A DNA stretch of 64,000 bases from Polytrichum commune (lineage: Eukaryota > Streptophyta > Polytrichopsida > Polytrichales > Polytrichaceae): positions 8,744,001-8,808,000 of the forward strand of contig OX485803.1 of assembly GCA_950295325.1 (NCBI GenBank). Direction: 5' to 3'. A program made the translations under genes and the position numbers. This document shows positions 12,813 to 13,013 of this stretch, in pieces; position 1 is the first letter of the stretch, and each line of letters opens with the position of its first letter. The notes beneath the pieces are model-generated. The model saw only the letters and a program-made list of their open reading frames with translations, made no database searches and was not told where the DNA came from.

Positions 12813-12935
12813 AGATTGGACGTTATTCTGCTTCGTCTTAATTTCTGTTTAACTATTTTTCAAGCACGGCAGCTAATAAGTCATAAGAAAATTTGTGTCA
12901 ATTATAAAATGGTCAATATTCCTGGTTTTCAAGTT
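12813..12935 (+). pseudogene. rps4: Fragment of mitochondrial rps4 (NUMT)
   Basis: 41 codons from [11 protein letters not shown] through [20 protein letters not shown] to PGFQV reproduce the S4 RNA-binding domain of plant mitochondrial ribosomal protein S4. In the organelle this domain helps the small-subunit protein bind rRNA. Both ends of the gene are missing. No ATG starts the local frame, which opens at TTG 12798. It is therefore a nuclear insertion of mitochondrial DNA rather than an expressed gene. The reading frame is unbroken, so the insertion may be fairly young, or the chimera may have arisen within an organelle genome first. It runs directly, in frame, into plastid rbcL sequence at 12936. 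Confidence 0.8.
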
Positions 12936-13013
12936 TATTCCAAAACTTTCCAAGGCCCACCTCACGGTATCCAAGTTGAAAGAGATAAATTAAACAAATA
13001 TGGTCGTCCTCTT
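12936..13013 (+). pseudogene. rbcL: Fragment of plastid rbcL (NUPT)
   Basis: 26 codons encode [20 protein letters not shown] followed by KYGRPL, the segment of the Rubisco large subunit just before the active-site TIKPK loop (around residues 145-170). The catalytic lysines are not included. The fragment is fused in frame to the preceding mitochondrial rps4 piece, then diverges (IHGEARL) and stops at TAA 13035-13037. It cannot make a working Rubisco subunit. The nucleotide sequence is essentially plastid-like with no frameshift. The origin may be a plastid insert inside the mitochondrial genome that was later copied to the nucleus, or joint repair with two organelle fragments. Confidence 0.85.

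What the first reader, a model, noticed from the sequence alone, without database searches (positions are those of the whole stretch)
12813..13013. In-frame mitochondrial rps4 / plastid rbcL chimera in nuclear-type DNA
A piece of the mitochondrial S4 protein domain (41 codons) passes without a gap or frameshift into 26 codons of plastid Rubisco large subunit. The two donors sit in different organelles. Either a plastid insert recombined within the mitochondrial genome and was then transferred, or two organelle fragments were joined during nuclear break repair. The direct, in-frame join with no filler is the odd part.
Basis: partly seen in the sequence, partly recalled or inferred. Interest (0 to 1): 0.75.

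Follow-up and report, generated by a model that had tools for sequence, protein, structure and literature searches.

The report
Nuclear mosaic of organelle DNA scraps
A plant chromosome carries a 300-360 base patchwork of mitochondrial and chloroplast scraps, most likely stitched together by ordinary DNA break repair; the in-frame join is a coincidence and this kind of patchwork is already described.

Summary
Bases 12806-12934 encode part of a mitochondrial-type ribosomal protein S4 and run directly, in frame, into 76 bases (12935-13010) identical to the plastid rbcL gene. From 13009 a third piece follows, 96 bases identical to plastid DNA beside a ycf3 exon. On the left, 12744-12806 is a further, unidentified, probably mitochondrial piece. 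The joins share about 1, 0 and 2 bases, as end joining leaves them. None of the 13 other matches in the assembly (11 nuclear, 2 plastid) carries a join, and two other nuclear rps4 copies continue as rps4 where the window switches to rbcL. An in-frame, same-sense join of two coding scraps is expected about one time in six (arithmetic). The 88-codon frame has no ATG before 12909 and ends in plastid non-coding DNA. This is a nuclear mosaic mitochondrial-plastid insertion ('numin'), a class described in nine plant genomes (PMC6215612), 2-10% of organelle inserts there. The plant's mitochondrial genome was not found in the held assembly (the one mitochondrial-type contig seen, C9, looks fungal), so joining inside the mitochondrion is unlikely but not excluded.

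The parts
12744..12806 (+). Piece 1: unidentified, probably mitochondrial scrap (inferred); relatives at five other nuclear sites, one of them abutting the 3' end of a group II intron
   Evidence: 90-100% identity over 41-61 bp, different flanks; RF00029 at L019:600-681 minus, ending where the shared stretch begins
12806..12934 (+). Piece 2: rps4 fragment of mitochondrial type, 129 bp, S4 domain
   Evidence: protein; 9 differences of 129 to the nuclear copy C2:24912478-24912606; copies on C2 and C6 continue as rps4 beyond 12934
12935..13010 (+). Piece 3: plastid rbcL fragment, 76 bp identical to C8:99763-99838
13009..13104 (+). Piece 4: plastid DNA, 96 bp identical to C8:90122-90217, beside a ycf3 exon on the other strand (ycf3 intron inferred); may run to 13107 with one difference
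   Evidence: gene name ycf3 recognised by eye from the translation
12771..13037 (+). Chance open frame of 88 codons through pieces 1-4; TGA at 12768-12770 before it, TAA at 13035-13037 at its end; first ATG at 12909

Best explanation
The stretch is a nuclear mosaic insertion (numin). Free mitochondrial and plastid DNA fragments were ligated to each other by end joining while a break in the nuclear chromosome was repaired. This left a short concatemer: a mitochondrial rps4 scrap, a plastid rbcL scrap, and a plastid scrap from about 9.6 kb away in the plastome, with a probable further mitochondrial scrap on the left. Shown here: the identity of the S4 and the two plastid pieces, the joins, their uniqueness among the matches found, the chromosomal setting. 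Inferred: the mitochondrial source of pieces 1 and 2, that it was one repair event, and that it happened in the nucleus. It has no coding function; the open frame is a by-product of two coding scraps joined in phase.
For: Two plastid pieces from C8:99763-99838 and C8:90122-90217 are joined directly. Joins share about 1 bp (12806), 0 bp (12934/12935) and 2 bp (13009-13010, CT). Of 13 other matches to 12700-13100 in the assembly, 0 span any of the three joins by more than 7 bases (14 of 14 candidates scored). Nuclear rps4 copies on C2 and C6 continue as rps4 (SNGDLI-) past the point where the window changes to rbcL. Matches to plastid DNA are common on C1-C7: besides the window, 15 to a 5.1 kb plastid stretch and 39 to a 9.9 kb stretch (40 of 51 candidates scored). 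Blunt and 1-7 bp joins are described for this class in PMC6215612.
Against: The plant's mitochondrial genome was not found, so a chimera already present there cannot be excluded directly, and on the rps4 side the joins at 12806 and 12934 are judged from other nuclear copies, not from the source. The uS4m match beats uS4c only narrowly. Piece 1 is not identified. The outer borders are not defined: no empty-site copy was found (in one search, 40 of 53 candidates scored). No second mitochondrial-plastid mosaic was demonstrated elsewhere in this genome.
Confidence: 0.92

Rival explanations
1. Plastid fragments had already been inserted into the mitochondrial genome next to a broken rps4, and the chimera moved to the nucleus in one piece.
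For: Plastid inserts in mitochondrial DNA are known in plants (mentioned in the Discussion of PMC6215612). The plant's mitochondrial genome could not be checked.
Against: Needs several joins of very short plastid pieces from distant places inside mtDNA. Two other nuclear rps4 copies (C2, C6) continue as rps4 past the join, and none of 13 other matches has a join.
Confidence: 0.06
2. Assembly artefact: unrelated organelle reads misjoined into a nuclear contig.
For: The assembly holds a plastid contig and a foreign-looking mitochondrial contig, so organelle reads were in the data. No reads could be examined.
Against: The pieces are 76-129 bp, shorter than reads, and lie inside a chromosome-scale contig; misassembly does not normally splice in pieces shorter than a read (general knowledge).
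Confidence: 0.015
3. The in-frame S4-Rubisco fusion is a functional new gene.
For: 88 codons open through both scraps.
Against: No ATG in the frame before 12909; the frame ends in plastid non-coding DNA; neither scrap holds a whole domain (S4 model positions 1-42 of 48; Rubisco catalytic model 1-17 of 299, not significant). Expected in about 1 of 6 such joins (arithmetic). Expression could not be tested.
Confidence: 0.005

Closest known systems
Nuclear mosaic mitochondrial-plastid insertions (numins; Portugez, Martin and Hazkani-Covo 2018, PMC6215612)
   Same: Mitochondrial and plastid fragments directly joined in nuclear DNA, more than one plastid piece, blunt and short-microhomology joins, no filler.
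   Different: About 0.3-0.36 kb in total, against 3.6 kb in that paper's four-fragment maize example; the mitochondrial source could not be compared here; the words moss and Physcomitrella do not occur in that paper.
Simple and complex NUMTs and NUPTs
   Same: Short organelle-like fragments scattered over C1-C7 of this assembly.
   Different: Those come from one organelle; this one mixes both.

Membership tests
numin (nuclear mosaic organelle insertion) | at least one mitochondrial fragment | tested here: met
   S4 fragment best matched by uS4m among solved structures, narrowly; own plastid rps4 only 52% identical. By protein similarity only; no mitochondrial DNA of the species was at hand.
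numin (nuclear mosaic organelle insertion) | at least one plastid fragment | tested here: met
   76/76 and 96/96 identical to plastid contig C8
numin (nuclear mosaic organelle insertion) | located in a nuclear chromosome | tested here: met
   Lies near 8.757 Mb of C1, which has matches out to 75.69 Mb; dispersed repeats of C1-C7 on its left
numin (nuclear mosaic organelle insertion) | inner joins blunt or with 1-7 bp microhomology | tested here: met
   2 bp at 13009-13010, both sources known; 0 bp at 12934/12935 and about 1 bp at 12806, rps4 side judged from nuclear copies
numin (nuclear mosaic organelle insertion) | joined before or during one nuclear repair event, not resident in the mitochondrion | tested here: inconclusive
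   Joins unique among the matches found and two other rps4 copies normal across the join, but the mitochondrial genome is not at hand
plastid insert in mitochondrial DNA (MTPT) later transferred | contiguous match in the mitochondrial genome | not testable with these tools
   C9, the only mitochondrial-type contig seen, looks fungal and has no match to the window

The most novel reading that the evidence does not exclude
Piece 1 may come from spliced mitochondrial RNA. At one other site (L019, C7) the same sequence (window 12766-12806) begins directly at the 3' end of a group II intron, whereas the window and three other nuclear sites (L007, L017, L018) have a common 20 bp of other sequence fused at that very point, as an exon-exon join would look. 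If so, the insert mixes a cDNA-derived scrap with plastid DNA scraps in one repair event.
Probability: 0.07. Interest if true: 0.45.

Novelty: new member of a known kind. Interest (0 to 1): 0.15.

Why it matters
It is a clean and probably recent example (no or one difference to the plastome in the plastid pieces) of DNA from both organelles used as patching material in a plant nucleus, useful as one more data point on join types. It is no evidence for a new gene or a new transfer route.

Tried and rejected
Functional fusion gene: rejected, as the frame has no ATG before 12909 and ends in plastid non-coding DNA. This plant's plastid rps4 as source of the S4 piece: rejected (52% protein identity). 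Chance similarity: rejected (E values).

C9 as the plant's mitochondrion: rejected by inference. Its cox1 is split over about 7 kb; many of its long open frames look by eye like homing endonucleases and like fungal nad, cox2 and atp6 genes; it carries rRNAs, tRNAs and a group I intron; its atp6-like product is closest to PDB chains that I recall as yeast, though I do not know that a land-plant chain is in that set; five nuclear matches to its cox1 region are only 68-84% alike; it has no match to the window or to the 12 other nuclear loci tried. Against this, its cox1 exon is closer to entry 7jro, recalled as a plant, than to the yeast chains (231 against 217 bits).

Identity of piece 1: six-frame reading, Pfam (5 of 7 peptides, three from piece 1 and two from L019, without a hit) and an exact search of viral contigs (0 matches) gave nothing. 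Empty-site copy: no site in the lists for the left flank (40 of 53 candidates scored) recurs in the list for the right flank (11 of 11). Naming the species: one paper search (listing only) led nowhere; that the plastid genes look like those of a seed-free land plant is recall and was not tested. A paper search on bryophyte inserts was seen as a listing only.

Corrections to my notebook entry: it names a TAG at 12783 as the upstream stop, which is wrong (TGA at 12768-12770); it gives piece 4 as 95 bp to 13103 (96 bp to 13104); it calls C9 mitochondrial without the later doubt.

Full report
What was checked. The window is C1:8,744,001-8,808,000 of a 408 Mb assembly of 64 contigs. Frame 1 of 12801-13043 is open for 78 residues and reads as S4 domain followed by Rubisco large chain. 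phmmer against PDB sequences finds Rubisco large chains for residues 44-72 (E 2.2e-12) and S4 proteins for residues 3-43, the best named uS4m (E 1.6e-9) (best 60 of 104 shown). The S4 part alone is again best matched by uS4m, but narrowly (41.5 bits against 38.4 for a uS4c chain and 38.1 for the next mitochondrial one), and matches the Pfam S4 domain with E 1e-15. This plant's plastid rps4 is 52% identical to it. The Rubisco part gives no significant Pfam hit (E 0.27), but its DNA is 76 of 76 bases identical to rbcL of plastid contig C8.

What it is. The change to rbcL is not the only join. At 13009-13010 rbcL passes, over a shared CT, into 96 bases (13009-13104) identical to C8:90122-90217, beside a ycf3 exon on the opposite strand (recognised by eye), about 9.6 kb from the rbcL piece in the plastome. 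The ends of the exact matches are by definition the first differences; BLAST carries piece 4 on to 13107 with one difference in 99, and piece 3 back to 12929 and on to 13015 with two differences and a gap in 87, so the borders are known to a few bases. On the left the S4 piece starts inside the gene at 12806: copies on C2 and C7 have other sequence there that, by eye, can be read as rps4, while the window has piece 1 (12744-12806), which recurs at five other nuclear sites with 90-100% identity and different surroundings. At one of these (L019, C7) it follows directly on the 3' end of a group II intron (RF00029, 52.7 bits), which makes a mitochondrial source likely but not proven. The insert is at least 299 bp (12806-13104) and probably about 361 bp.

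How it arose. The joins share about 1, 0 and 2 bases; the 2 bp join has both sources known, the other two are judged on the rps4 side from nuclear copies. The plastid pieces show no difference from the plastome over 170 window positions, or one if piece 4 ends at 13107, so the insert is probably recent. None of the 13 other matches to 12700-13100 spans a join by more than 7 bases (11 nuclear, 2 in C8). The rps4 copies on C2 and C6 continue as rps4 beyond the join. This fits several loose organelle fragments joined end to end during repair of a nuclear break.

Setting in this genome. Matches to plastid DNA are frequent on C1-C7. Besides the window, one search lists 15 nuclear matches (at 14 places) to a 5.1 kb plastid stretch (19 in all, 3 in C8), and one search lists 39 to a 9.9 kb stretch (45 in all, 5 in C8; 40 of 51 candidates scored), at 73-99% identity; some of the older ones may not be insertions. 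Three places hold two plastid pieces close together: C5:46149209-46149620 with 46149620-46150474, C5:5021023-5021150 with 5021144-5021261 (both collinear, so a later deletion would explain them as well), and C4:47707620-47707681 with 47708838-47708986 (opposite senses, 1.2 kb apart). No second mosaic of both organelles was shown.

The open frame. Each scrap is open in its own gene's frame. Two coding scraps joined at random share sense and phase in 1/2 x 1/3 = 1/6 of cases (arithmetic, not simulated). The frame runs from after TGA 12768-12770 to TAA 13035-13037, 88 codons, has its first ATG at 12909 inside the S4 part and ends in plastid non-coding DNA. Nothing points to a product; expression could not be tested.

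Comparison with what is known. Of PMC6215612 I saw the abstract, matched passages, the first of two parts of the Results and the Discussion. It describes mosaic mitochondrial-plastid insertions in nine plant genomes, 1,782 in total, 2-10% of organelle insertions, blunt or 1-7 bp microhomology joins, and a four-fragment example in maize. The present locus meets each defining feature that could be tested. Other papers were seen only in search listings.

Limits. The plant's mitochondrial genome was not found: the rps4 protein search gave only C1, C2 and the plastid, and C9, the only contig outside C1-C7 with a cox1 match, looks fungal and has no match to the window (one search is less clear). A missing match does not show absence, since stretches may be unassembled or withheld. 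The outer borders are not defined.

Noticed in passing
G000:C9 (L013, L024-L030): The 67,364-base contig C9 carries a split cox1, rRNAs, tRNAs, a group I intron and many homing-endonuclease-like frames; it looks like the mitochondrial genome of a fungus living with the plant rather than of the plant (less clear).
   Followed up: partly
L019:400-760 minus (G000:C7:7761899-7762259): Another composite: group II intron 3' end, then the piece 1 sequence, then a stretch of about 104 bp (query 203-306) whose two borders recur in several of the 22 other matches. Either a mosaic of mitochondrial scraps or exon-like units.
   Followed up: partly
G000:C4:38180853, 38250939, 38330008 and 40372221: Four nuclear copies of the same plastid stretch (about L009:1824-2049) at 91-92% identity, three of them within 150 kb: a plastid insert that seems to have been multiplied after insertion.
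   Followed up: no
window 11410-12305: Dispersed repeat with dozens of matches, mostly 74-84% identical, close to the left of the insert (40 of 4268 candidates scored).
   Followed up: no
window 6464-8755: Two long open frames that by eye look like an F-box/leucine-rich-repeat gene; not tested by any search.
   Followed up: no
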